NCBI RefSeq assembly: GCF_026210795.1
Contig: NC_089442.1
Location: 4,430,501-4,494,500, forward strand
Direction of reading: 5' to 3'
DNA length: 64,000 nucleotides
DNA from: Rhizophagus irregularis
Lineage: Eukaryota > Glomeromycota > Glomeromycetes > Glomerales > Glomeraceae
The notes beneath the pieces are model-generated. The model made no database searches. It was given only the letters and a program-made list of their open reading frames with translations, and was not told the origin of the DNA. Made by a program: the position numbers and the translations under genes. This document shows, piece after piece, positions 1 through 52,985 of the stretch. How positions within the stretch are numbered: the stretch's first letter is position 1; every line of letters begins with the position of its first letter.

Positions 1-8
1 AGGACATA

Positions 9-97
9 TTAAACATCAAAAATCATTTGAAGAATTGAAGGTTCAAGGGGATTAATTGCTGAAGAAAATTCTGATGGATCGCGTCGAACAATTATGA
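9..97 (-). CDS. candidate 3'-terminal exon of a minus-strand gene
   Basis: Reading the minus strand, a poly-pyrimidine stretch ending in TTTATTGTAG stops at 98-99. It is followed by an open frame (first two bases complete a codon) that ends in TAA at 9-11. It encodes 28 residues with ordinary-looking composition, including VRRDPSEFSSAINPLEPS. The array of mini-exon-like repeats lies immediately upstream on the same strand (133-968). The nearest unit, 133-170, would leave one base in its best frame, which joins correctly to this exon. No domain is recognised. The upstream exons and the start are not resolved, so this is only a partial model. It could also be a chance open stretch. Confidence 0.35.
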
Positions 98-985
98 CTA
101 CAATAAACTCTCCCCCACCCCCTTTAACCTACCCTTTTCGCAAGAGAATTCCAAGTCCGAATGCAAGTTCCTAAAGAAAAAAAGAAAAAAGAATATCAGT
201 GACATTCCTACAGCAAACCTCCCTTCCCTCACACCTTTTAACTTACCCTTGCAAGAGAATTCCAAGTCCGAATGCCAGTACCTAAAGAAAAAAAAAGGAA
301 CGTTAGTGACGTTCCTATAACAAAAGAAACCCATATATTTAACCTACTCTTTCACGAATTCAAGTCCGAGTGACGGTTCCTAAAGTATTTCTGTAAAAAA
401 ATATTTTTTTTAAATAATTAAAGACCGAAACGAGTTGAGTCAACCTGGGTCAGTTTTCTTAATAGTAGCTTGTTCAGTATCCTACAAAAAGAAAAGAATC
501 GTTAGAACGTTCTTAATTAATAAACACATTCGCACACTCCCATTTACCTCTATTCTTGATCATCACCGTTCTAAAAGAACGGACCATTCCTAAAGAATAA
601 GAATAAGTAAGTGAAGAAAAAAGAAAAATAAAGAAAAAAAAACGAAAATATACCTTCCGCAACTTCCTGCATTCTTAGAAATCCACTGAAATCGCCGTTC
701 TGAAATCGCGAAAGAAGAGACCGTTCCTAAAGAAATAAGAATATATAAAGTAAGTAAGAAAATGAAAAAAATGAAAAATCATAAAATCAAAAAAAATGAA
801 AAATATACTAACCTTCCCGTACCTCTTGGAAGTCCACTTAACTCGCCGTTTCAAAAGAGACAGTTCCTAAAGAAATAAATAAAGTAAGTAAAGGAAAAAA
901 ACCGAAAAAAATAAAATATACTAAACCTTCCTCCAAATCGCCGTTCTGAAAGAACCGTTCAGTCCGTTCTTGAAGAAACTAAAAA
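98..985 (-). repeat. tandem array of mini-exon-like units
   Basis: The minus strand shows successive units. Each consists of an acceptor-like TTCTTTAG, a 32-73 bp block usually starting GAAC, a donor-like GTAAGT, GTAGGT, GTTAGT, GTAAAT or GTATAT, and 60-86 bp of AT-rich spacer. Exon-like blocks lie at about 927-968, 813-866, 654-726, 548-589, 348-379, 247-281 and 133-170. The blocks at 133-170 and 247-281 are nearly identical and share the reading HSDLEFSC. The block at 348-379 is a decayed version with a one-base loss. The blocks at 654-726 and 927-968 share FQNGD in one frame. Lengths are not multiples of three, so joining all blocks would break frame. Either one block is used per transcript or the array is decaying. 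Confidence 0.55.
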
Positions 986-2982
986 AAAAAGATCAGATAA
1001 TCAAACTGGATTCGAGTCGATCTTTTCCCGATTCTGAATCAATTTTTTTTTGAGGCGAAATTTAATGAAACAGTCTATTAAAGACTGGAAAAAATTTTTT
1101 TATTTTATTTTTTTAACAAAATGGTCTGTTAAAGATGTGATTAGCCGTAATTTAATACAAACTAATAGCTATACCATACCGATAACCGATTAAATTGATA
1201 TTCCTAATTTATTCTAATGATCTAATGATTTGTGGCACGACTTTTTGATAAATGATCAATTATGTTCGTGTAATATCTATTTCTCCATCAGACCGCTCAA
1301 CCAAAAAAAAAAACCCGTTGCTGTTCACGTGATTGCCGCATCGCGGTGGAAGAAAAAAAATAAACTGGCAACCAATGATTCATTTTTTTCACCTACAGTA
1401 TAGTAAATTGAAAGAATCAGGAAAGAACAAATAAATCTAACCAACAACATTTTTTTATTATTTTATAGCAAAATTTAGTGAAATATATCACCTTTATGGG
1501 TTCTTGATCTTATAGTTTGTAGATTGTAAAAGTTTAAAGGTTAAACACTCAAAAATACAAGTTAGTATTATTTGATAATATTTAATGAGTATTAACTATT
1601 ATCAATTTTTAATTATATTCCTTATTATAGGATTTATTGGTAAACAGAAATAAATAATGTTTAAAACTTTTAAAGAATTATTTTATTTTCATGTAGTTTT
1701 TAATAATAACTAATAACTTTGTCTTTTTTTTGTAATTTATTTTGAATAATTTTTAATTTATAATATAATCACAATTAATATTATTCTATTTAATAAGGAT
1801 TAGTTGTAAAATTGTAAATAAATTATTTATACTTTGCTTTATTGTTAAAGTGGGCAAAGCTTCCTATACGGAATATGGTAACTTTTTAATAATAATTCGT
1901 TTGCTGACTAAACGGTAGACGTTGAGCATAAGAGGATCGTATACGTGACATAAATCACATAATTTGACGGGCTATCCAATAAATTTATTATTATGCTAGA
2001 ACATAGTGTGACTAAAGGTTGTTTAGTTTCAAAAGGGAAGATATTTTTTTGTTTCAACGGTCAATATCCAAATTTATTTTTAAATGATCTAAAACTTAAA
2101 AGATTTGTTAAATCAGTACGGATTGTAATTCAGTAGATTCTTCAAAATACTTTTCAACAAAAAAAGATTTTAAGAATTTTCAGCACTTACAGCATCTGCA
2201 GGAGAAAGATAAAATTTTAATTTTTTTTTAATAAATGCAGAAATAGTAATAATTTGAAATTATATTAAATAATTCCGTTTAAGAAAAATATTAATATTAC
2301 AAAAGTGAAAATTCGTTTCCTTTCAAGAGAAATCGATAAGTTTTTTAGAAAATAAATTTCACCTTCATTAAAAATAAACATTTTTATTCTAGTAAAGTAC
2401 TTTCTGGAGTTAGTTTATATTACGATATAAAATACCAAAAAGCTGAGTAACCAATCAACTACAATGCAAGAAGTTCTCATGTAAACGTATTATAGACAAG
2501 CAATTGTTGCAATGATCTTTACGATACGATTAAAATTTCTCGTTTACCTAACTTAGGTTTCTTTACAAGAAAAATTGTTACGTATTATTCCTACGAGGTA
2601 AAGTCCAATTATGATTAAAAATCAACTTTTTTTCTTCATAATCTATGATATTCGTCTTAAATCTTTTTAAACGCATGAATGGATTAGACATTAGTTCCCA
2701 TAATTATACAGCTGTGCTTATCCCCGAATTTGAAAGAAATCTATATTAAAATTTATGTAGAATTAATAATATCACGTTACAATTCCCTAGTAATAAGCAT
2801 ATTGACATTTCGAAGAGGACTTAGAATTATCTAAATAACCGATTAATTTAACATTATCTTAGATAATACTGAAAGATATAAAAAAACTTTTTTTTTTTAA
2901 GAAAAAAAAATTTTTTTGAACAGTTAATATCTGATTAATCCGGCCAATCCGGTCAAAACTATCCGAACATTTTGAAACTTAC
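986..2982. other. AT-rich spacer, no gene seen
   Basis: Long A/T stretches with many stops in all frames. There is a CACGTG site near 1328, and 1012-1023 resembles the TCGAGTCGA sequence at 3644-3652. It may contain introns or lost exons of the minus-strand gene suggested by the arrays on both sides, but none can be supported. Confidence 0.5.
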
Positions 2983-3262
2983 TGATTAAAATCTTCAATC
3001 CAAGAAAGCAAGAACTGATGCTGATACCTACAAAAAAAGAAAAAAAAAATTAATAAGAATTTCTTAAAAAAAAAATATTTAAAAAAAGTAGTTTCAAAAC
3101 TCTCGTTTCAAAACTTACCGATCCAAAGCTAAATAACCGAAAGCCGACACCTACAAAAAAAATAAAAAAGTTTAAATAAAATTTTAAAAAAATTCATTTA
3201 AAAAAAGTTTCGAAGAACGCTTCAAAACTTACCAATCCAAACCTGAGGACTGATATCAATAC
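2983..3262 (-). repeat. second mini-exon-like tandem array (3 units)
   Basis: On the minus strand three exon-like blocks lie at 3233-3262 (30 bp), 3119-3150 (32 bp) and 2983-3027 (45 bp). Each is preceded by a T-tract ending in GTAG and followed by GTAAGTTT. The two spacers (3151-3232 and 3028-3118) are AT-rich and begin with the same GTAAGTTTTGAA. The blocks are related: all begin GTRT and share a TTGGATYG motif near their 3' part. The pattern matches duplication of an exon together with its flanking intron. No protein domain can be named. Confidence 0.55.
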
Positions 3263-4205
3263 CTACAAAATGAACGTTTAATAACGTTTTGTTAAATAAA
3301 GATATAAAAAAAAAATCTGGTTTTTTTTATAATTGTATGAGATACATTAATGAATGACACTATATTCTTAATTAAATATTTATAACTTTTCTGCCTTACG
3401 GAGAGGTGCAGATGTTAAAAAGAGAATTTTTAATGAAATATTAGTAATTCATGGGAGATTACAGAGATTTTCTAGCAATCTCCACGAAATAATTGTGTAA
3501 TTCCCAGGAATGTATCACAACTTTAGAAAGGTCTATTTCGGCAAGTGAAGTGAAATTTCTCATAAACCCTACTATAACTTTATAAGACTTTGCAATAGCA
3601 TATAATGTTGTCCGTAGGGATGGAATCGGTTCAAAATGAGTCGACTCGAGTCGATTCTGGAACCGATCTTAAATTTAAAAGATTCTAGATCTCTTGGGCT
3701 TAAAACTACTTTTAATCATAAAAACCGTTCGAAGTTCGAACCGATTTCGAACCGACACACCAACTATCATTTGAGGCCAATCAAAATTTTTCTGGTTGAT
3801 CATCATCACGTCTTAATTAGCTCACACAACATATCACGTGATGAATAATCCTTTAGTCATTGTACAATGATCTTTTTGGAAAATACTCTTGCGATACTTG
3901 TACTTTAAGCAGTAAGAACAGTAAAAATTTAAATAACTCATTCGTGTTTCATATGTCAAATAAACAAAACATGATACATATTGTCATCATCTATCTGTAA
4001 TTCATGTTCGGATTATCCAGTTTTGAAGTATAATATGTTGACTTGTTGACTTATTAGTAGTGGTCTTCGAAATATTACGGTTACACACTTTATAATTGAT
4101 AATTTAACGAATAATTAATAGCTAATCTTATAAAACACCAAGCAATTCGAACATTCCTAATGGCTATACATTTTTTATCTCTTTACCATCAACAATTTAC
4201 TAAAT
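3263..4205. other. spacer with a small palindromic repeat at 3620-3760
   Basis: Mostly AT-rich sequence without a supported gene. Between about 3620 and 3760 there is a GC-richer patch built of TCGA-containing palindromes (for example GAGTCGACTCGAGTCGATTC, then several copies of TTCGAACCGA). It looks like a decayed fold-back or MITE-like element. The last 150 bp are presumably the promoter of the gene starting at 4206. Confidence 0.4.
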
Positions 4206-12116: not shown

Positions 12117-15100
12117 ATGAATAAGATTCGCATGTCGATTGAGATGTATTTTTTTTTATTATTTATTCTTACGATATTCCCTTTTTTTCATGGTTTTTTT
12201 TATAACAAATTATCTCTTAAAATAATGAGCGAAGAAAATACTATTCAAATATCAGATGATGTCAATGAAATAGTGTCACACAACTCACGTGATCCGCACC
12301 ACGCGCACAATGGAAAACAAATATCTTTAGTATCATTATCTCCTAACGGTACATATATCGTCACATATAGCGAAGATGATAAATCAATTGAAGGATGGAT
12401 TGTAGATAATTCTAAACTGATCCCAGATTCTCAAGTAAATGTACCAGAAGAATCAAAGAAAATTTTTATGATTAAAGTAAATGATAGTAAAATTGTTTGT
12501 TTTTTGTGTAGAAGGAATCATGAAGTTTGTGTAGAAATCTTTCAAATTTCAAATGAACATCGTCCATTTAAACTTAATCCAAAACTTAAAAAGTGGCAAC
12601 CTACAATTTTTTTCCAAAAAAATGGCAATCTTGTAATAAATACCTCTTTTAAAATATTAATTTATTCTCCACATGATGAAATAAACGATGAGCTAATTTT
12701 AATGTCATCTTGTGAAATATCAAATAACAAAGGAAATTTTATTGATGAGGATAATAATGTATGGGCTATTTCTTCAAATTATTTATTTCATTGGGATTTA
12801 GAAACATCACGATTGAAATTTAGTTATTCGCTTGGGTTTACGGCAACTCATAGTAAAACTAATAACAAGTTGACGGTAATGTCTAAAGGAAATTATATTT
12901 TGGTGAAACATTATGATGAAATTGCAATCTTTTCAAAAGGTGTACATTTTCCAATTCGTAACATTTGATTAATAAATTCTGATATGAAGATAGAATTGTG
13001 CGAAGTACAAAATAATGTTTACCTTTTAGCTTTTAATTCACCTGAAAAATACACAATAAATATAATATATGATATAACTGATATATATGATATAATTGAT
13101 ACCAATAAACAACCCGTAGATGCATCAAGGATGTTTAATGATGAAAACTCTGAGAACGACTACAAGAATAAGTTTATTCTTTGTGAATATAATTCAGGAT
13201 CAAAGAAAGCATTTGGACTAGTTGATGGAAAAATTTCATGCATCAATTTATCAGATTTAAATTGGCATGATTTTTATGAATCTCATAAGGGAGAAGATGA
13301 TTTTATCGGTTGGAATAATTACTTGTGTCAGACGGCTTTCGAAAAGAATTATTGTAATGATACCTTAGCTTTTCCTGATATGGAAAGTATTAGATCTTTA
13401 TTTTCTAAAGAACATAAAAATATTCAACAAATAAACTTTGATAATCAAAAATATAAATGGAAAATAAGTCAGACAACCAATAAACTCTTAGTTTATATGG
13501 ATGAAAAAGAATTGTGTTCAATAAATATTTTTAAAAAACAGAACTCTTCGAAATTTCAGGAACTGAAATGGAAAATCCTTAATAATAATGCATTAGCATT
13601 ACTAGATAATAAGACTATAAAAATATTTGAATATAATAACAATAAGGAGAGTATTAAAATTCAATATAAATTTCGCCGAAATAGTGGACTAAAAGTCAAA
13701 GAATTTTCTGGACCTATATTACCGATAATGAGTGATGTAAAAAAAGATTTCTTAATTGAAATCATTAGCAGTATCATTGAAGATGAAAGATGCCTTGCGA
13801 AATATGGACCAACTTTATTACCAAATTTAATAAAGTCGTCTGATCCAGAATTAACTCGTTATATAAAAGATATTTATAACAAATGCATGAAACTTGTTAA
13901 AGAAGATCCAAAAAGAAATCTGAAATTTCTCAATATTATAACTTCCTCTATGAATGATTTACATAAAAAATATCCTGATCACATAACAAAATTCAATTCT
14001 GAAATGTTTATGTTATTAGACCCTTTTAATGAAAAAATTGACGATAATGATTATTCACATTTTTATCCTTTTTGCCAAGAAATAAAAATTGGTAAACAAC
14101 TTATACAATATGAATTAAATTTTAAAATTTTATTGATTTTAATATCGTTATTATTTTTACCATTTACAATTATTTTAATTATTTTATTTTTAATATATAT
14201 TTTTATAACATATCGAAAATATACAATTAAATTAATTAAATTAGTAATATTTCAACTATTTCTAATATTTCAACGCGATCAATCTAAACAACGCAAACAA
14301 CAAATTGTTCTTATTGTGCCCTATATAGATTATTGTTATTATCCATTTGAATATAGTGGGTGGAAAGAAATATTTTATCCTCAATCGAGTGTTTTTACTG
14401 ATACTTGTAAAAAAGAATTTTATACGAGTTGGAATGGTGAAGCAATTATTAATTTTAAATGGAATACATTTGGAAGGATATATTATTTTGTTATTTGGCT
14501 ATTATTTATGGTTTTTCTTGTATGTTTCACAGTTGCTTCTTATCCTACACTTTCTATAACTCGAGATGTTCGTATTAATCTTTATCAAACTTCGATTGCA
14601 TTTGGATTTTTTCATATTATATTTGAATTAAGACAATTTATCTGGAATCCAAAAAAATATTTTTCAAGTATTTGGAATTTATTTGGTAAGCGTATTTTTA
14701 AGACTTATTTTTTAAAGTTTATTAAATTTGAACTAACTTTCTTAAAAAAAAAACCAGATATAAGTGCGTATCTTTCCGTTACTATTACATCAATTTATTA
14801 TATTAAAAATGATGTTACAGTTGTTACACCCGAATGGGCACTATCAATTTCATGTTTATTATTAGATTTAAAATTTTTACTTTTCTTTAAAATATTTGAA
14901 TCATTTGGTGTTTATTTTGCAATAATTTTTGGAGTAGCTAAACGTGTATTTTCCTTTTTGGTAGTATTGGCAATTATTATTTTAAGTTTTGCACATGCTT
15001 TTTTTTTACTTTTACATCCTGAAAAGCTATTAGATTCGTTAAAGGCACAAAATCCAAATGATTCAAATAATCCTTGGACTCTTTCTAATACTTATAATCA

Positions 15101-15787
15101 AACTGATGAAAATGGAAAAATATTAAATGAAACCCTTATTCAAGTACCTGGTGAAAATACAAATTTATTTTATTCATATTCCACTTCTCTTCTTGCAACT
15201 TATTTATTTTTAACAGGTAACTGTTAACATTAATTAATATTTACAATTAAAATATTGTAATTTATACTAATATATAAACATGTATAACAAATAATTTTTA
15301 GGTAGCCAAAATTCATTTTCACCTTGGTCACCTGATCCAACATCTATTGGAAATTTATTTTAATGGCAGTATTTTCATTCTTAATTGTTATATATTTAAT
15401 GAATTTATTTATTGGTTTACTTAATATGGCAATTGAAAAGGATAATGATAGAGCTTCATATTTAGTACAAAAAGCAGAAGTTATAGCAGAAATCGAACTT
15501 TTTTATTTGTTACCTCATCAAAGACGTTGGAAAACTTGGTTTCCTGAAGTAATGTAAGTATTTTATTTATTTACTTATTTATTTTCGAAAAAAAAGAAAA
15601 ATGAATACTGATTAATAATAACTTTTTATGGTTTAGTTATTATACTGTAGAAGTTGAGAAAGCTCGAAAATACATTAGAGAAGCAATCATAAAAGGTGAA
15701 TGGAAAATGGATGATTGGCCTGAAATGAAACATAAAATTTTAAAGCTTCTTAGCATCGAAGATGTTATTATAGATCTAGCAGTTTAA
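12117..15787 (+). pseudogene. propeller-TRP-like channel, copy 1 (broken)
   Basis: The N-terminal half carries a propeller-like module (SLVSLSPNGTYIVTYSEDD near 12331, then VWAISSNYLFHWDLE). The C-terminal half (from about 14100) holds six hydrophobic helices of an ion-transport domain. These include FMVFLVCFTVASYP, VFSFLVVLAIIILSFAHAFF, a pore segment SLLATYLFLTG and a last helix ending NLFIGLLNMAIEKDND, as in TRP-type cation channels. Introns are 14686-14757, 15217-15301 and 15554-15636. The family start is probably ATG 12225; an upstream ATG at 12117 adds a hydrophobic leader. Two lesions are visible against copies 3 and 4. TGA at 12966-12968 stands where the others have CAA. A net 7-bp loss near 15345-15360 shifts frame and gives TAA at 15361-15363 before the last helix. 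The family is a presumed membrane channel; this copy should not make a full protein. Confidence 0.75.
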
Positions 15788-21466: not shown

Positions 21467-22028
21467 ATCGAAATATTTTTTGAAATTATTTTATTAAAAA
21501 TTCGATAAAATTTTTTTCGTGTTAAAATTAAAAAAACAAATATTAGGTAATTAAATATTCTAATGTCTTTCTCATAACCCGTTCTCCCTATCCTAGATTA
21601 TCTTTTACTCAGTAATAATGGAACTGCAAGTCGTCGATATTAATATGAAAATATACAGTTTATATGGTTAATATGACTATTTTTTTTTAAAAAAAAAAAA
21701 TAGTAAGTGTAAACATAATTTTATAAATAAAACACTAATTCAATTAATTGTTTGTTTATCTAAATATTCAATATTAATATTACAAAATTTCACGTGACTT
21801 CATGAATAGTCATTATAACATTACTACCTGGATGGTAAACTTGTATAGCCCCAGTCGAGTCTATATCTTAAAAATAAAAAAAAACTTGTATATTTATTTT
21901 TTCCAATTTTTATGTGCCCTGAGCCCCTGATAATTTGACATTTATCATTTTTGAAAGCCGGCTGCTATTTGGCATTACGAGTATTATCCATAAGGCTATG
22001 TAAAGTAAATACATATGGAGCGGAAATT
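21467..22028. other. spacer between channel copies 2 and 3
   Basis: AT-rich, no gene. It contains a T8A10 dyad near 21683-21702 and a CACGTGA site near 21790. Confidence 0.4.
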
Positions 22029-22144
22029 ATTTATTCTACTCATAAACGTTGGATCAGCATAACCGAGGGCTATGTAGACCTGCTGTATGCTATATAATTC
22101 ATGCGATTTTTAAATTGTTATTAAAAAAGACAATTATTTTTCAT

Positions 22145-25100
22145 ATGGCAAACACGATACTCAACCCACGCGATCCGCACAATGCGCACGACGGAAAACA
22201 AGTATCTTTAGTATCTTTATCCCTTAACGGTAAATATGCCGTCACATATAGCGAAGACGATAAATCAATTGAAGGATGGATTGTTGAAAATTCTGAACCG
22301 ATACTAGATCATGAAGCAAATGTTTATAAATTACCAAAAGAATGGACGTATATTTATGAGATTAAAGTAAATGATAGTAAAATTGTCTGTTATTCATCTT
22401 ATGATAATATTGAAATCTTTCAAATGTCAACCGAACATCAGCAAATTGAACTTAATCCTCCACCTGAAAGTTTAGTAGAATATAAGATTAATTTCAAAAA
22501 AGAAGGGAATCTTGTAATATTCAATAATGATAAAATATCAATTTATCATTCTAAGCATGATATGAGTAATGAGCTAAGTTTAATGTCATCTTATGAACTG
22601 TCATCATGTAACAAATTAATAACTGGAAAGTTAATTGATTATATTAAAAAAGTAATAAATGGAGTGTTTATTGATGATGATAATATATGGGTTATTTCTC
22701 CACATTATTTATTTCATTGGGACTTGGAAACATTTCAATTGAAATTTAGTTATTCACTTGGGTTTACGGCCAAGTATTATGAGCATGGTAAATTAACAGT
22801 ATTAACTAAAGGAAATTCAATCGCGGTAAAATATATGGACTATGAAATTAATGAAATTGCAATTTTTTTAAAAGATGTACATTTTCCAATTCGAAATATT
22901 CAATTAAAAGATACCGATACAAAAATAGAATTTTGCGAAGTACAAAATAATGATTATCTTCTGGCTTTTAATTTACCTAGAAAAGACGAAAAACAGAATA
23001 TAATCTTATATAATATAACTGACATCAACGCACAACCCAAAGATGCATCAATGATTTTTAATGAGAATAAGTTTATCCTTTATGAATATAATTCAGAATC
23101 AAAGAAGGCATTTGGATTAGTTGATGGAAAATTTTCATATATTAATTTATTAGATTTAAATTGGCATGAATTTTTTGAATCTCATAAGGAAGATGATGAT
23201 TTAGTTGGTTGGAATGATTACTTGTGTCAAACTTTTAAGAAGTATTACTATAATGATACTTTAGCTTTTCCTGATATGGAAAATATTAGATCTTTACTTT
23301 CTGAATCTAAAAATATGAAAGAGGTTGTTAGATCTTTATTTTCTCATGAATATGAAAATAAAAATATTGCAACTAAAGATATAAACTTCAATAATCAAAA
23401 ATATAAATGGAGAATAGAACTGAAAATTGATAAACTCGATAAACTTGATAAACTCAATGAACTCGACAAACTCGATAAACTTGATGAACTCGATGAACTT
23501 GATAAACTCGGCAAACTTGATAAACTCTCAGTTTATTCAGATAAAGAATTTCTGTGTTCAAAAGATTTAGGTATCAAGTTTACCAAGTTTACGAGGTTGA
23601 ACTGGAAAATTCTTAACAATAATGCGTTAGCATTACGACTTGATTATAATGGTTTTATTATAATATACGAATATGATATCCATAACAAATGTATTAAAAC
23701 TCAATACTTCGTTTACAAAAGGAAAATGCTAAATATTAAAGATTTTTCTGGACCTACAGTATATTGCCAATGATAATCGCAACAGAAATAGCAGATCTCG
23801 ACACAAATATTAACCGTAAACAATATTTCACAGTGTTGTCAGAAAGTATCATTAGTATCATCGAAGACGAAAGATGCCTTGCGAAATATGGACCAACTTT
23901 ATTATCAAATTTAATAAAGTCGACTGATTCAGAATTAACTTGTCATATAGAAGATATTTATAACAAATGCATAAACCTTGTTAAAGAAAATCCAAAAAGA
24001 AATATGAAATTTCTGAATATTATAATATCATCTATGAATGATTTATATAAAAAGTATCCTGATTATATAACAAAATTTAATTCTGAAATGTTTATGATTT
24101 TAGATCCTTCTGATGAAAGAGTTCACAGTGATGGGGATCATTCGCATTTTTATACTCTTAGCGATGAAGTAGAAATTCGTAAAATATATGAAGATACAAC
24201 TATTAACTATGTTATTGGAAATATTAAAATACTCATTAAAATACTCATAATCCTAATAATTTTATTTCTGACTATTTTAATTTTATTGTTACCATTTATA
24301 ATTATATATATAATTTTTAGTCGAACTGAATTTCTTGACTTTCTTGAACATGAGAGACAACGCAAGCAACAAATTGTTCTTATCACACCATATATAGATT
24401 ATTCTCGTTATCCTTCAGAATATAGTTCATGGAAGGAAATATTTTATCCTCAATCAAGTGTTTTTGTTAATACTTGTAAAAAAGAATTTTATTTAAATTG
24501 GAATGGTGAAGCAATTATTAATTTTAAATGGAAAAAATTTGGAAGGATATATTATTTTACTATTTGGTTAATATTTATGGTTTTTCTTGTGTGTTTTACA
24601 ATTGCTTCTTATCCTACAAATTCTATAACTCGAAAAGTTCGTATTAATCTTTATCAAACTACAATTGCTTTTGGATTTTTTCATCTTATATTTGAATTAA
24701 GACAATTTATCTGGAATCCAAGAAAATATTTTTTAAGTATTTGGAATTTATTTGGTAAGTGTTCTTATAAAATTTATTTTTTTAAATAGGTTTAATTTGA
24801 AACTAACTTTTTTTTAAAAAAACCCCAGACTTAAGTGCTTATCTTTCTGCTACTATTGCATCAATTTGTTGGATTAAATATGGTGATATACCATATTGGG
24901 CACTGTCAATTTCTTGTTTATTATTAGATTTAAAATTTTTACTTTTCTTTAGAGTATTTGAATATTTTGGTGTTTATTTTGCAATAATCTTTGGAGTAGC
25001 TAAACGTGTATTTTCCTTTTTGGTAGTATTAGCAATTATTATTTTAAGTTTTGCACATGCTTTTTTTTTACTTTTACATCCTGAAAATCTTTTAGATTCG

Positions 25101-25841
25101 TTAAATGCACAAAATCCAAATGATTTAAATAATCCTTGGACTCTTTCTAATACTTATAATCAAGTTGATGAAAATGGAAATATCTTAAATGAAACTCTTA
25201 TTCAAGTTCCTAGCGAAAATACCAATTTATTTTATTCGTATCCTACCTCTCTTCTTGCGACATATTTATTTTTAACAGGTAATCGTTAACGTTAATTAAT
25301 ATTTACCATAAAAATAACTTATACTAACTTATTTGACCTGAATTTTAGGAAATCAAAATTCATTATCACCTTGGGCACCAAAGCCAACAACTGAAAATAC
25401 AATTTTATTCATTCTAATGGCAGTATTTTCATTCTTAATTGTTATATATTTAATGAATTTATTTATTGGTTTACTTAATATGGCGATCGAAAAGGATAAT
25501 GATAGAGCCTTGTATTTAGTACAAAAAGCAGAAGTTATAGCAGAAATTGAACTTTTTTATTTATTACTTCATCAAAGACGCTGGAGATCTTGGTTTCCTG
25601 AAGTAATGTAAGTATTTTATTATTATCAGTTATTATTATTATTTTAAAAAAGAATATGAATACTAATAAATAATAACCTTTATGGTTTAGTTATTATCGT
25701 GTAGATGTTGAAAAAACTCGGATATATATTAAAAAAGCTATTAAGAAAGGTAAATGGAACATGGATGACTGGCCTGAGATGAAACATAAAATTTTAAAGC
25801 TTCTTAGCATTGATGATGCTATTATAAATCTAGCAGTTTAA
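22145..25841 (+). pseudogene. propeller-TRP-like channel, copy 3 (single frameshift)
   Basis: The best-preserved copy. ATG 22145 opens directly into the conserved PRDPHNAHDGKQVSLVSLS. The propeller-like region continues to about 23740. The channel part follows: a hydrophobic run at about 24225-24320, FMVFLVCFTIASYPTN near 24575, ISCLLLDLKFLLFFRVFEYF, FSFLVVLAIIILSFAHAFF, pore SYPTSLLATYLFLTG and final helix LMNLFIGLLNMAIEKDND. Exons are 22145-24754, 24829-25278, 25349-25607 and 25691-25841; all joins keep frame. The only lesion seen is a 4-bp gain near 23756-23761 (GGACCTACAGTATATTG against GGACCTATATTACC in copies 1 and 4), giving TGA at 23771-23773. Without it the frame would be open throughout. 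It may be a recent null allele, an assembly error, or a strain difference. The predicted role is a plasma-membrane or organelle cation channel. Confidence 0.75.
23424..23533 (+). repeat. in-frame KLD/ELD minisatellite inside copy 3
   Basis: A 9-bp unit (GATAAACTC/GATAAACTT/GATGAACTC) repeats about twelve times and encodes tandem DKL and DEL tripeptides. Copies 1 and 4 have only a short stretch here, so the expansion is specific to copy 3. It preserves frame. Confidence 0.8.
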
Positions 25842-46915: not shown

Positions 46916-46976
46916 CGCTTCTTAGGAAGGATACTTCTCGTTCGAACAGGATAAGGCGTCTCAATTAAAAAAAAAG

Positions 46977-49701
46977 ATGGGGAATATTAAAAGAATTTTT
47001 GCTCTCATAATAACCTTATTCGTGATATCTGCGTTTTCAAGATCAACTTTTTCTGAGCAATTAAAACATAAACGACAAAACAAAGATAATGGCCTTTTTA
47101 CACCTTATATTCCTTTGGAGCCAACGCCTAATCCTATAACAAGAAGTTACGAAGTTGAATTGTCCCAAATAAATTTAGCTCCAGATGGTTTTACGAAAAC
47201 AATTTTTGCAATCAATGGTCAATATCCCGGTACTGTCATTCATGCTAATAAAGGTGATAGAATTCAAGTTACAGTAAAAAATAATATTGGTGAACCGTCA
47301 GGTAAAAAATTATTTTTTTTTTCATATATTTTTGTGTATTTAATTGAAAGATCTGTGAACGTTTTTCATCTTAATACCTTCAATAATAATAGTTATCCAT
47401 TGGCATGGAATGTTTCAGAGAGGAACTAATTGGTATGTAAATCATTTTTTTAATTTTTTAATTTACATCAAAATTACCTCATTTTCGTAAGAAAAAATAA
47501 TAATAAAAATTTAAATTTTGACTTTGTAAAAAATAGGTATGATGGAGTATCAGGACAAGTAAGTTAATCTGAATTAAATTAAATTAATCCTTTTTTAGTC
47601 TCGATTTTTTTTTTTTCTGACCGATTTATGTCACGTGATCATCAAATGATCAGACTCAGTGTCCCATTCCCAACGGTTCATCATTCGTGTACGATTTTAG
47701 TACCCAAGAACAACGTGGAACCTTTTGGTACCACGCACATACACATGGTCAATATATGGAAGGAATTCGAGCTCCATTAATGTAAATATTATAATTTTAT
47801 TATTACCGTATTTTGCGGTTAGTAAGCACCCCCGAAAATAAGCATACCTGGCCAGAATCATAAGGATCTTGGCCGGCATTAAGTGCAAAATGGGGTGCTT
47901 ATATACCGCAAAATACGAAGTTCACGAAACATGTATTCAATTTACGATATATTTTATATATACTTTTTTTTAAAAAAAAAAAGCATTCACGATCCCAATG
48001 ACCCTTACCGTAAAGATTATGATTTTGAATACATTATAACGATGTCGGATTGGTATCATCAACGTGTATCAGATATGTTGGCAATAAGAATGTCTCCAAA
48101 TTATGGCGGTCGTAATGTACGAATTAAATCTTTTTATACTTTTATACTTTTATTATTTGATTCAAAATTTAATAATAAAATATTTTATCATTTAAATATA
48201 GCCTATTCCGGATTCTGGTCTCATAAGTGGTGCCGGTCGTTATAATTGTTCTGCTGCTCCACCTGGTAGCGAATGTCGGGAAAACAATCCACTTGCTGAA
48301 TACAAAGTTACACCCGGTAAAAAATATAGACTTCGTTTAATAAATACAAGGTAAATAGAAAATGAAATTTTTTATTCCGGGATGGTCTTTTGCGGATAGT
48401 AACCATAGTAATCATATCAATTTTTTTTTTTAGCGGATTGTCCCACTTTATGTTTTCGATCGATAATCATCCTTTAAAGATTATTGAAGCAGATGGAGAA
48501 TATTCGAAGCCAGTAATAGTAAATAAATTGCCTGTAGCCATTGGTCAAAGATATTCTGTCATTATTGATGCTAACCAAAAAGTTGATAATTACTGGATGC
48601 GTGCGACGATTGATGATAGATGCCTTCTAATTAATAACCAAACAGTAAATTTCGATTCAGCGATAAATTATAATGTTACAGGAATTTTAAAATATGATGG
48701 TGCAGGATTAGGTTATCCAACATCCACTGAATATCCCGACCAACTTGAACCTTGTCTTAGTATTGATCCAAATCTTTTGAAAACACTCGAACCTCAACAA
48801 ATTCCTGGACCTGCAACAAATAAAATTCAATTAGTCGTAACTTTTAGAGATGACGATCAGAATGTTACACGTGCTTTTATAAATAATTCTTCGTTTGTTG
48901 TTGACGATAATAATCCAACATTAGAAAAATTTGTTTCTGATGACGTGCCGTTAGATCAATTTCCTGCTAATCAAAATATATATGCTTATGATCAACTGGG
49001 TGGAACTATTGACATAGCTTATATAAGTAAGTTCCGTACCGAGAACAATCCTTTTTTTGTACTATTGTTCTACTTGATTATAATTTATAAACAAGACAAA
49101 GTAAAATTAAAAAAAAAATTTTATAATTTATATTTTTAAATTATAGATAATAATAGTGCGATTCATCCAATCCATATGCACGGACATAATTTCTATGTAC
49201 TTGGTACAGGATCAGGAATAGTAGTTGATGAAAGCAAGTTGAATTTAGTGGATCCTTTCCCTCGCGATACATTTGTAGTGAACTCAACCAGGTAAGAACC
49301 AGTAATTTGAACGATTGTTTATTTATTTATTATATTTATTTAACGTGAAATTTTCTATTAATGAAAATAGTTGGTCCGTATTTCGATACAAAGCTGATAA
49401 TCCCGGTGTCTGGTCTATACATTGTCATATTGAGGTAATTATTTTTTTAAATTACTATATTTTTTTTTAAGTAAATTTTAAAAAAGAAGTTAACCAATCA
49501 AATATATATATTTTTTAGTGGCATGTTGAAATGGGTATGATCGCGCAACTTATTGAGTTACCAACGGAACTATCAAAAGTCACAATACCAGAATCTGTTA
49601 GTAATTTATGTAAACAACAAGACAATTCCAATTCAAAGAGATCCAAATTCTCAAGAAGGAATAGACTATTTAATACTGATATGAAAAGAATAAAAGTATA
49701 G
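46977..49701 (+). CDS. secreted laccase-like multicopper oxidase
   Basis: Ten exons give 591 codons: 46977-47301, 47393-47432, 47537-47558, 47660-47781, 47984-48116, 48202-48350, 48434-49026, 49147-49291, 49371-49434 and 49519-49701. A signal peptide ([14 protein letters not shown]) starts the protein. All copper-ligand motifs are present: HWHG (111-114), WYHAH (152-156), HPIHMHGH (468-475) and HCHIEWHVEMGM (527-538). C528 serves the type-1 site and M538 sits at the axial position. The enzyme should oxidise phenols or metal ions at the type-1 copper and reduce oxygen to water at the trinuclear site, outside the cell. No C-terminal membrane anchor is seen, so it is less like Fet3 ferroxidase. 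The third exon is only 22 bp. The intron before exon 5 holds a MITE. Its last exon has a broken second copy at 50311. Confidence 0.92.
47807..47918. mobile_element. intronic mariner-like MITE
   Basis: CGTATTTTGCGG, then AAGCACCCC, at 47807-47833 is mirrored by GGGGTGCTTATA and CCGCAAAATACG at 47893-47918, giving inverted ends of about 26 bp with two or three mismatches. The whole element is about 112 bp and sits in the 202-bp intron between exons 4 and 5 of the oxidase, in an AT-rich target. Without it the intron would have the usual size of about 90 bp. It has no coding capacity. Confidence 0.75.
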
Positions 49702-49960: not shown

Positions 49961-50245
49961 CTTTTTTTTTATTAACAATTGTAATAGTAGTATTTCTATG
50001 TGATTTCTTAATTAATTTAACATTATTAGTAGAACTACCATTATAACTATGATGTAATAATTTAATATATTATTATTATTATCATCTGGTAAAGAAAGAA
50101 TAGAAAATCTTTGATTATATTTATTATCATTATTTGGAATTGTACTTATACCATTTTTCATCCATTCTGCTTTTTTTGATTTAATATCAAAGTTATAATA
50201 TGAATAAGTAGAACGATATAAATCTTTTTTTACTATAATGTTTTG
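49961..50245 (-). pseudogene. duplicated tail fragment of membrane protein copy B
   Basis: On the minus strand this encodes part of the low-complexity C-terminal tail (KSKKAEWMKNG, then NQRFSILSLP) found intact in copy B at 50760-51030. It lacks all transmembrane exons, has a frame change before its end, and is a by-product of the tandem duplication. Confidence 0.8.
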
Positions 50246-50310
50246 TAGTGGCATGTTGAAATGGGTATGATCGCGCAACATATAAATCCTTTTTACTATA
50301 ATGTTTTGTA

Positions 50311-50489
50311 GTGGATGTTGAAATGGGTGTATGATCGCGCAACTTATTGAGTTACCAACGGAATTATCAAAAGTCACAATACCAGAATCAGTTGGTAATT
50401 TATGTAAACAACAAGACAAATTCAAAGAGATCCAAATTCTCAAGAAGGAATAGACTATTTAATGTTGATATGAAAAGAATAAAAGTATA
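50311..50489 (+). pseudogene. duplicated last exon of the multicopper oxidase
   Basis: It follows a TTTTGTAG acceptor-like end and copies 49519-49701. Loss of CA (TGGATGTTG for TGGCATGTTG) and gain of GT break the frame. The copper-ligand histidine of this exon is lost, and a later indel ends the frame early. It is not expected to be used. Confidence 0.8.
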
Positions 50490-50759: not shown

Positions 50760-52985
50760 TTAATAATTATTAACAATTGTGGTAGTGGTATTTCTATGTG
50801 ATTTCTTAATTAATTTAACATTATTAGAAGAACTACCATTATAACTATGATGTAATGATTTAGTATTATTGTTATTATTATTATTATCTGGTAAAGAAAG
50901 AATAGAAAATCTTTGATTATAATTATTATCATTATTATTATTTGGAATTGTACTTACACCATTTTTCATCAATTCTGCTTTTTTTGATTTAATATCAACG
51001 TTATAATATGAATAAGTAGAATTATATAAATCTTTTTTACTATAATGTTTTGAAGTTGTACTAGGAGAAGAATTATTATTATTATTATAATTCGAAATTT
51101 TTGTTGATGAATAAGAATAACGATGATAAGCTGAAGGTATGATAGCATCATTACCACAACCTATTCCTATAATAGTACTACTACGACTTCGACCATTATT
51201 ATTATAATGACTACTATTACATATTTTTTTATTATTCCTATGTAATTTCTTCGGAGGTTTTTTTGATGCCACATGAGTACTAATAAAAAAAAAAGAAGAT
51301 TTAGTTATTATGCATACCAAAGCAATGTTGACAAATACCCAATGCGTAAACACTAAGTGAATTAAATCAAAACATACTTATAAATCATAACCCATTGAAT
51401 TACATGAATAAAGATAGGTAAACCATAATTCCAAATAATTATAATGGTAAGATTAATCCCATTAACAAAAATAATATTAGATCTACGGAGAGTCACGTAT
51501 ATAAATAAGACCAAAAGAAAAAGACATGCAGGAATTATTTTCCAAATAACTGGAGAGGTTAACTAAAGAAAGAAATTTTCATTAGTCAACGGTGAGATTT
51601 CAACGGTGAGATTTCAACGGTGAGATTTCAACGTGATTTCAACGTCGTTTCAAGTTTCAACGTGGTTTCAACGTGATTTCAACGTCGTTTCAAGTTTCAA
51701 CGTGGTTTCAACGTGATTTCAACGTCGTTTCAAGTTTCAACGTGGTTTCAACGTGATTTCAACGTCGTTTCAAGTTTCAACGTGGTTTCAACGTGATTTC
51801 AACGTCGTTTCAAGTTTCAACGTGGTTTCTTTCAACGTAAAATAAATTATATACTTACATTATCACGATTTTGTAAGAATTGTTCTAATATTGAATCAAG
51901 ATTCTTTTTTTTATCATTCAAAATTAAATCATCAATATTTTTTTTTACCCTAGGAATGAATCTTGACCAAAAATATATCATTGATCCAATATAACCTGAA
52001 CCCCATAAAACCCAAAATATATTTTGAACTATAAAATAATTATTCGCTTTCTCAATATTACCAATATCAGCATAATAACCTGTTAATCCGGCCAATGGTA
52101 AAAAGATGATGAAAGGTAATAACATTAAGGTGATACATGTGATGTCTATTTTAAGTAAATTCCGAGATTTTTTTGATTCCATTAAAGATAATGTTGTATC
52201 TAATTCAATGGCACCCGTTGAATATACTATATAAAAATAAAAAAAAAAGTACATATAAAAATTTTGTCATTTATTAAAATAGCGTAAAATCCGTAAAAAA
52301 TCCGAAGATCATAAAAATTGGTAATATCGTAAAAATTCGTAAGATCCGTAAAACAAAAAACACAAACACTTACAAATGCTCAACGGATATAATACCGAAA
52401 ATGATGCTATTAAAGTTCGAGGTAATATTTGGAAAACTTGTAATATTATATAAAAAAAAAAAAATAATAATTAATTAATAATCTTAAATTACAAATAAAT
52501 TTATAATATAAAATATAAAATATATGTACTTTCGGCCCAAGCAACGTTCGGATAAAGATCGTTAACAAGTTGAAGTATATGAATGATTTGCCCTGTATAA
52601 AATAAAATAAATATATGATGAGATTTACACATAGCATATATGCATATAATACTTTACAATACTTACATGGACAATATATTAAAGCCAAAGCATAGTACAT
52701 GTGTTGTGGACGTGGTCTTAAAATTCCACGATCTTTTCTTGCAGGAAGAAAGAAAGGTTGTTTCTTAACATAAATTAAATGGTACAAACATATTGATGAT
52801 ACTATTGTTAATAATAAACAATAAGCTAATAAAACCCAATTTATGATCTTAAGAATTTCTTGTTCAGGACATTCATGAATATTAATTCTAAAATCACAAA
52901 TACATATGCTAGTATCCCAAACAAATTTGTTATGAGGATTATAGTTTTTACATAAAAGGGTAAAACTATTTGATAAACGAACCAT
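50760..52985 (-). CDS. multipass membrane protein, copy B (7TM-like)
   Basis: Six exons (minus) join to 505 codons: 52985-52667, 52592-52530, 52436-52374, 52226-51859, 51562-51378 and 51279-50760. It is a paralogue of copy A. It has the same start (MVRLSNSFTLLC), the cysteine motif CICDFRINIHEC, the motif GILRPRPQ after helix 1, the motif TGYYADIGNIEKAN, and two exons of exactly the same length (368 and 185 bp). The copy A exon 2 corresponds here to two short exons. About seven hydrophobic segments are followed by a basic, Ser/Asn-rich tail of about 170 residues whose sequence differs completely from copy A. Ligand and function are unknown; a receptor-like role is only suggested by topology. 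Its 3' end overlaps the tandem duplication, and the exon 4/5 intron contains a minisatellite. Confidence 0.85.
51586..51838. repeat. 40-bp intronic minisatellite
   Basis: Three 14-bp units (CAACGGTGAGATTT) lead into five near-perfect 40-bp units built from TTTCAACGT words (TTTCAACGTGA, TTTCAACGTCG, TTTCAAG, TTTCAACGTGG). ACGTGATTTC recurs at 51631, 51671, 51711, 51751 and 51791. The array fills most of the 296-bp intron between exons 4 and 5 of membrane protein copy B. Confidence 0.95.

What the first reader, a model, noticed from the sequence alone, without database searches (positions are those of the whole stretch)
98..985. Reiterated mini-exon array on the minus strand
Seen: at least seven blocks of 32-73 bp, each with a TTTAG-type acceptor before it and a GTAAGT/GTTAGT/GTAGGT-type donor after it. 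They repeat every 90-140 bp and lead into a plausible terminal exon at 9-97. Related blocks keep peptide similarity (HSDLEFSC in two, FQNGD in two), yet lengths are not multiples of three. Inference: exon-plus-intron units were duplicated, and if used they would have to be mutually exclusive to keep frame. Tandem alternative exons on this scale would be unusual in a fungus. The alternative is simple repeat decay.
Basis: partly seen in the sequence, partly recalled or inferred. Interest (0 to 1): 0.72.

Follow-up and report, generated by a model that had tools for sequence, protein, structure and literature searches.

The report
Three repeated mini-exon arrays, one strand
A short stretch of what looks like a fungal genome carries three old tandem arrays whose units look like tiny exons with well-kept splice signals, which suggests a spliced but fast-changing transcript rather than a set of alternative protein exons; no RNA data were available to prove it.

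Summary
The blocks are real. Self-BLAST found no other diverged long-unit tandem array in the 64-kb window. With splice matrices from 12 introns elsewhere in the window, this strand holds two of the three best separate intron chains among 506 overlapping one-kb segments; the other holds training introns. 0 of 1000 shuffles reach either score. In arrays 3 and 1 splice-site columns are kept (16/16, 14/16) while bodies diverge; neutral simulations of matching divergence rarely or never reach that (0/200 and 0-1/200 per setting). So splicing is probably real, or was until recently. Mutually exclusive coding exons are not supported: some lengths are multiples of three, each sub-array is open with all exons included, all of A-H together is closed, codon usage in A-C is not gene-like, and the proposed last intron is 35 nt. 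Best reading: a minus-strand transcript with serial mini-exons whose splice sites, not content, are conserved. Array 2 (A-D) has mostly weak donors and may be decaying.

The parts
922..978 (-). block A (57 nt with donor at 921, 52 nt with donor at 926)
   Evidence: acceptor 979 in best 0.2% of window AGs; neither donor in the best 6%; in the alignment the site matching the other copies' acceptor reads CAAG
813..866 (-). block B, 54 nt
   Evidence: acceptor 867 and donor 812 both in best 1%; intron 812-727 scores 10.7
654..726 (-). block C, 73 nt
   Evidence: acceptor 727 best 0.6%; donor GTATAT not in the best 6%
548..589 (-). block D, 42 nt
   Evidence: acceptor 590 best 1.6%; donor GTAAAT not in the best 6%; frame break to E
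445..481 (-). block E, 37 nt, not clearly similar to the others; frame 0 has positive codon score
   Evidence: acceptor 482 best 1%; codon score +4.8 over 12 codons, no null computed for that length; donor GTTGAC not in the best 6%
348..379 (-). block F, 32 nt (43 nt from the stronger acceptor at 391)
   Evidence: acceptor 380 not in the best 6%, 391 is; intron 347-282 scores 8.9; alignment
247..281 (-). block G, 35 nt
   Evidence: acceptor 282 best 0.1%, donor 246 best 1%; intron 246-171 scores 11.8
133..170 (-). block H, 38 nt
   Evidence: acceptor 171 best 0.3%; donor 132 GTAGGT best 5%
12..97 (-). possible terminal coding exon (28 codons and stop); from H it would need a 35-nt intron
   Evidence: codon score 8.2, above 88% of coding windows and reached by 0.2% of 1886 open non-coding windows; but as maximal segments the plus frame 34-168 scores 8.4 and the minus frame 128-12 7.7
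3233..3262 (-). array 3, block u1, 30 nt
   Evidence: donor 3232 best 0.6%; acceptor 3263 not in the best 6%; alignment
3119..3150 (-). array 3, block u2, 32 nt
   Evidence: acceptor 3151 best 0.5%, donor 3118 best 1.2%
2983..3027 (-). array 3, block u3, 45 nt
   Evidence: acceptor 3028 best 0.4%, donor 2982 best 1.2%; next acceptor 2869 best 0.5%

Best explanation
The minus strand of about 3.3 kb to the window's low end carries one or two spliced transcription units in which exon-plus-intron units of about 100-140 bp were tandemly duplicated long ago, at three separate places. The copies are spliced in series, not as mutually exclusive choices. Selection has kept the splice sites while exon bodies drifted, so the sequence of the mini-exons matters little: either a non-coding or leader part of a transcript, or a fast-evolving small protein. 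Array 2 (A-D) is losing its donors. Shown in silico: the arrays, their strand-specific splice signals, and the unequal conservation in arrays 1 and 3. Inferred: transcription, use of the junctions, serial inclusion, selection as the cause.
For: Self-BLAST finds three diverged tandem arrays in 64 kb, all here; the other pairs it lists are 91-96% identical. Splice matrices from 12 other introns: chain scores 27.3 (array 3) and 23.4 (segment 1-1000 minus) lead 506 segments together with the 27-28.5 kb minus segments (26.0), which hold training introns; plus strand of 1-1000 scores 6.8. 6 of the 17 non-training introns scoring 7.5 or more in the window lie here. 0 of 1000 dinucleotide shuffles reach either score; opposite strands score 6.8 and 0.0. 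Splice columns invariant 16/16 in array 3 against 12/30 exon and 37/94 other intron columns (P 1.5e-6), 14/16 in array 1 against 20/32 and 26/74 (P 9e-4). Neutral simulations with matching overall conservation: array 3 0/200 and 0/200, array 1 0/200 and 1/200. Block G+C 43.6% against 23.0% between blocks; reference flanks 31.1%, introns 18.0%.
Against: No RNA data, no genome of the source and no relative were available. Boundaries were chosen because they look like splice sites, so the conservation tests carry selection bias. Copies are not independent, so chain scores overstate the evidence. In array 1 the longest invariant run lies inside the exon. Array 2 donors are mostly weak and it gave no four-way splice columns to test. 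The acceptors of F (380) and u1 (3263) are not in the best 6%. The best chains with an ATG are only 38 and 53 codons.
Confidence: 0.5

Rival explanations
1. Decayed intergenic tandem repeats on a T-rich strand; the splice-like motifs are by-products of unit sequence and composition and are not used.
For: Array 2 donors mostly weak, A-H closed as a whole, A-C codon usage not gene-like; the window holds many other tandem repeats, some of them diverged with short units of 9-42 bp.
Against: Shuffles keeping dinucleotides never reach the chain scores (0 of 1000); splice columns of arrays 1 and 3 are kept better than bodies; strand asymmetry.
Confidence: 0.33
2. Mutually exclusive coding exons: F, G and H (all 2 mod 3) are alternatives leading into a terminal exon.
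For: F, G and H differ in length by multiples of three (32, 35, 38) and G and H keep HSDLEFSC in one frame; the exon at 12-97 has gene-like codons in frame 2.
Against: H to 97 needs a 35-nt intron; F has a stop in the frame that fits the terminal exon; E-H is open with all exons included. MXE below 0.2% of events in the fungi of PMC6176087 (passages), though called in 171 genes of Schizophyllum commune, mainly in UTRs (PMC5034255, passages).
Confidence: 0.06
3. A plus-strand protein with hydrophilic tandem repeats: the plus frame 75-317 (81 aa) holds two in-frame copies because the G-H period is 111 bp (37 codons).
For: Open plus frames with repeated peptides; the reverse complement of the joined E-H blocks is open in two frames; plus frame 34-168 codon segment 8.4, slightly above the minus one (7.7); strong plus donors at 607, 750 and 884.
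Against: No acceptor in the best 6% on the plus strand of 1-1000; best plus chain is one intron, 607-678, 6.8; third copy at spacing 98 is out of frame; lysine richness follows from A-richness; the minus strand also has an 81-aa frame here (343-101).
Confidence: 0.06

Closest known systems
Schistosome micro-exon genes (MEGs)
   Same: Many very short internal exons in series in one transcript
   Different: MEGs: about 80% of the coding region in short symmetric exons of 6-36 bp (PMC5825161, passages); here lengths are 30-73 nt, 6 of 11 not multiples of three whichever donor is used, and coding is unproven
Aphid bicycle genes and megacycle
   Same: Many small internal exons, fast-diverging sequence with better-kept exon-intron structure, internal tandem duplication in megacycle (PMC9168663, passages)
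   Different: Bicycle internal exons almost all have phase 2 and the genes are putative effectors; no common phase and no signal-peptide exon shown here
SP7-like effectors of arbuscular mycorrhizal fungi
   Same: Possibly a similar host lineage (a guess); repeated units
   Different: Protein repeats with a Y[KR]Rx[AP]x[AP] motif and a conserved intron before the first repeat (PMC11333574, passages); the motif is absent from all six frames of 1-3600
Mutually exclusive exon clusters of animals (recalled, no call)
   Same: Tandem duplicated exons
   Different: Frame-neutral alternatives; here serial inclusion keeps frame within each array

Membership tests
Mutually exclusive exon cluster | Alternatives share phase, so that each alone but not together keeps the downstream frame | tested here: not met
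   A-D, E-H and u1-u3 each open with all exons included; F has a stop in the terminal frame
Mutually exclusive exon cluster | Transcripts carry one copy at a time | not testable with these tools
   no RNA data
Micro-exon gene (MEG type) | Short symmetric exons (multiples of three) | tested here: not met
   of 11 blocks B, D, u1, u3 and (one donor choice) A are multiples of three; C, E, F, G, H and u2 are not
Micro-exon gene (MEG type) | Many very short internal exons with good splice sites | tested here: inconclusive
   in silico yes for arrays 1 and 3; use not shown
Bicycle-type gene | Internal exons almost all of one phase, in a gene for a putative secreted effector | tested here: inconclusive
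   no common phase over the open chains, whose frames are hypothetical; best ATG chains short; no signal-peptide test run
SP7-like effector | Y[KR]Rx[AP]x[AP] motif at repeat ends | tested here: not met
   0 matches in six frames of 1-3600; 1 in the whole window, at 21639 minus, outside the arrays

The most novel reading that the evidence does not exclude
A fungal gene of the micro-exon kind: a transcript built from serially reiterated mini-exons, in which selection holds the splice sites and exon count while exon content is free to diversify, as in schistosome MEGs or aphid bicycle genes but evolved independently.
Probability: 0.15. Interest if true: 0.75.

Novelty: new variant of a known kind. 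Interest (0 to 1): 0.42.

Why it matters
If the junctions are used, this is a case in a fungus where exon-intron units were multiplied at three places in one locus and splice sites outlasted exon sequence, which would let one ask whether fungi also use mini-exon reiteration to diversify transcripts. If not used, it is a clear example of how a repeat unit can mimic a multi-exon gene.

Tried and rejected
Coding by unspliced frames: the minus frame 343-101 and the plus frame 75-317 are both 81 aa and open over G-H; neither decides. Hexamer-based intron training gave poor introns and was replaced by frame-plus-motif selection, of whose 14 rows I kept 12 as references, dropping 11732 and 47738 as doubtful. 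The 12 include three paralogous introns (15554, 25608, 31934). Pfam on the joined E+T peptide and on 3465-3668 minus: no family at E 1. Rfam: 0 matches at gathering scores; ARAGORN: 0 genes. Exact block DNA in viral contigs: 0, 2, 0; in prokaryote genomes 3. Of these 5 loci, three show a profile match of 22-31 bases round the seed and two none at E 1e-3; taken as chance. Similarity of exon bodies between arrays and E: 2 of 43 comparisons have p below 0.03 (H-B 0.028, A-E 0.013), so no common origin is shown at exon level. Profiles of single arrays find weak cross-hits between arrays on the minus strand (E 0.0024, 0.042, 0.028, 0.01 and 1.4) and nothing else in the window at E 5. Open-frame chance by shuffling within exons: A-D 0.017, E-H 0.16, u1-u3 0.37; suggestive only, since donor choices were free. 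All of A-H is closed; of its subsets 23 of 70 with four blocks, 8 of 56 with five, 1 of 28 with six and 0 of 8 with seven are open. The first neutral simulation (0 of 150 in four settings) was more diverged than the real array 1 (invariant fraction 0.36 and 0.28 against 0.49) and so too easy; one search repeats it at matching divergence and is the one to use. Literature (10 searches; open-licence PMC papers only): tandem exon duplication with mutually exclusive exons and fungi gave 3 papers, none on a fungus by title and start of abstract; R. irregularis with micro-exon or exon duplication gave 0; 'small exons' with arbuscular mycorrhizal and secreted gave 0; microexon with effector, tandem, secreted proteins and fungus gave 2 listings, of which I read passages of one. 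In PMC10234402 (passages) nothing on repeated exons was seen.

Full report
What is there. The minus strand of window 98-985 holds diverged tandem units. Self-comparison gives 111-287 against 225-385 (74.6%) and 574-785 against 711-925 (70.8%). With an E-value limit of 1e-4, aligned length of 50 or more, offset 20-600 and low-complexity filter on, the only other tandem pairs in 64 kb are at 50216-50347 and 51612-51829, 91-96% identical. Tandem Repeats Finder lists many further arrays, some diverged but with short units of 9-42 bp; it does not list these three. So three long-unit, diverged arrays sit in 3.3 kb and self-BLAST found none elsewhere.

Which strand. I took 12 introns from other genes of the window, chosen by open frames on both sides, and built donor and acceptor matrices. 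These introns mostly have GTAAGT donors and are 70-120 nt long. In 98-985 minus, nine acceptors are in the best 6% of the window's 5098 AGs (the worst of them, at 391, in the best 2.1%); on the plus strand of that interval there is none. Plus-strand donors at 607, 750 and 884 score well, but the best plus chain is a single intron, 607-678, at 6.8. On the minus strand the same letters read ACTTAC, which resembles a branch point (sequence shows; reading by inference).

Significance. A dynamic-programming chain of introns (48-150 nt) and exons (20-130 nt) was scored over 506 overlapping one-kb segments on both strands. Array 3 minus is first (27.3), the 27-28.5 kb minus segments, which hold training introns, are second (26.0), and segment 1-1000 minus is third among separate places (23.4). 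Its chain uses introns 535-391, 347-282 and 246-171, so it rests mainly on array 1, not array 2. Of the 27 non-overlapping introns scoring 7.5 or more, 10 are training introns; of the other 17, six lie here (246, 812, 3118, 3232, 347, 2982). Dinucleotide shuffles: 0 of 1000 reach the score for either stretch (best shuffles 20.8 and 20.6). Copies in a tandem array are not independent, so these figures overstate the evidence: one lucky unit would be multiplied. The conservation test bears on that.

Conservation. In array 3 the two longest runs identical in all three copies are the acceptor (10 columns, two of them exonic) and the donor (8 columns). Splice columns are 16/16 invariant, exon 12/30, other intron 37/94 (hypergeometric P 1.5e-6). 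In array 1 the figures are 14/16, 20/32 and 26/74 (P 9e-4); its longest run, TCGGACTTG, lies in the exon, and the acceptor ties for second with a T-rich run. Array 2 gave no four-way splice columns; pairwise, B, C and D keep 8 of 8 aligned splice columns (by inference the acceptor) and A-B keep 6 of 7. Neutral simulation from one copy, at overall conservation close to the real one: array 3, 0 of 200 at 0.48 and 0 of 200 at 0.52 (real 0.46); array 1, 0 of 200 at 0.46 and 1 of 200 at 0.51 (real 0.49). The boundaries were chosen because they look like splice sites, so some bias remains.

Composition. The 11 blocks have 43.6% G+C and the stretches between them 23.0% (the 35-nt H-T stretch, at 49%, left out); reference introns have 18.0% and their 60-nt flanks 31.1%. 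The blocks are thus richer in G+C than the window's own coding flanks.

Coding. With all exons included, A-D is open in one frame (chance 0.017), E-H in one (0.16) and u1-u3 in one (0.37); A-H together is closed, because D is open only in a frame that meets a stop in E. The reverse complement of E-H is open in two frames, so openness there does not favour the minus strand. Codon usage is not gene-like in A, B and C (-7.1, -7.3, -3.8 in frame 0) and near zero in F, G and H (1.3, -0.1, 0.9). It is positive in E frame 0 (+4.8, no null for 12 codons) and in 97-12 frame 2 (+8.2; reached by 0.2% of 1886 open non-coding windows). E and 97-12 would join in frame over a 347-nt gap, leaving F-H inside an intron (inference). 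But as maximal segments the plus frame 34-168 scores 8.4 and the minus frame 128-12 scores 7.7, and the window has 21 segments of 8 or more outside the training frames, so this coding signal is neither strand-certain nor rare. The best chains with an ATG are 38 and 53 codons.

Reading. Mutually exclusive exons are not needed to keep frame, and fail for F and for the 35-nt intron after H. Pure decay explains array 2 but not why splice columns in arrays 1 and 3 are so well kept. I therefore favour a spliced minus-strand transcript with serial mini-exons under selection for splicing rather than for exon content, at 0.5, with unspliced repeat decay at 0.33.

Source. A fungal Zn2-Cys6 cluster domain (PF00172, E 1.6e-7) and multicopper oxidase domains fit a fungus. 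That it is an arbuscular mycorrhizal fungus is my guess from base composition and gene content, from no call.

Noticed in passing
12117-15636 (+), 22046-25690 (+), 35118-31862 (-): Three large genes that read as paralogues and share an intron near the 3' end; of the first copy, searched in two parts, Pfam gave only matches below cut-off, among them WD40 and ion-transport families.
   Followed up: partly
51586-51838: Minisatellite with a 40-bp unit built from TTTCAACGT blocks, copies 91-98% alike.
   Followed up: no
46926-49146 (+): Multicopper oxidase gene (PF07732 and PF00394 matches) with at least one intron.
   Followed up: partly
75-317 (+) and 343-101 (-): Overlapping 81-aa open frames on opposite strands, each with two in-frame peptide repeats because the local period is 111 bp.
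   Followed up: partly
52666-52227 (-): Two high-scoring introns (11.7 and 11.4) in and next to a 186-aa frame; likely an ordinary multi-exon gene.
   Followed up: no
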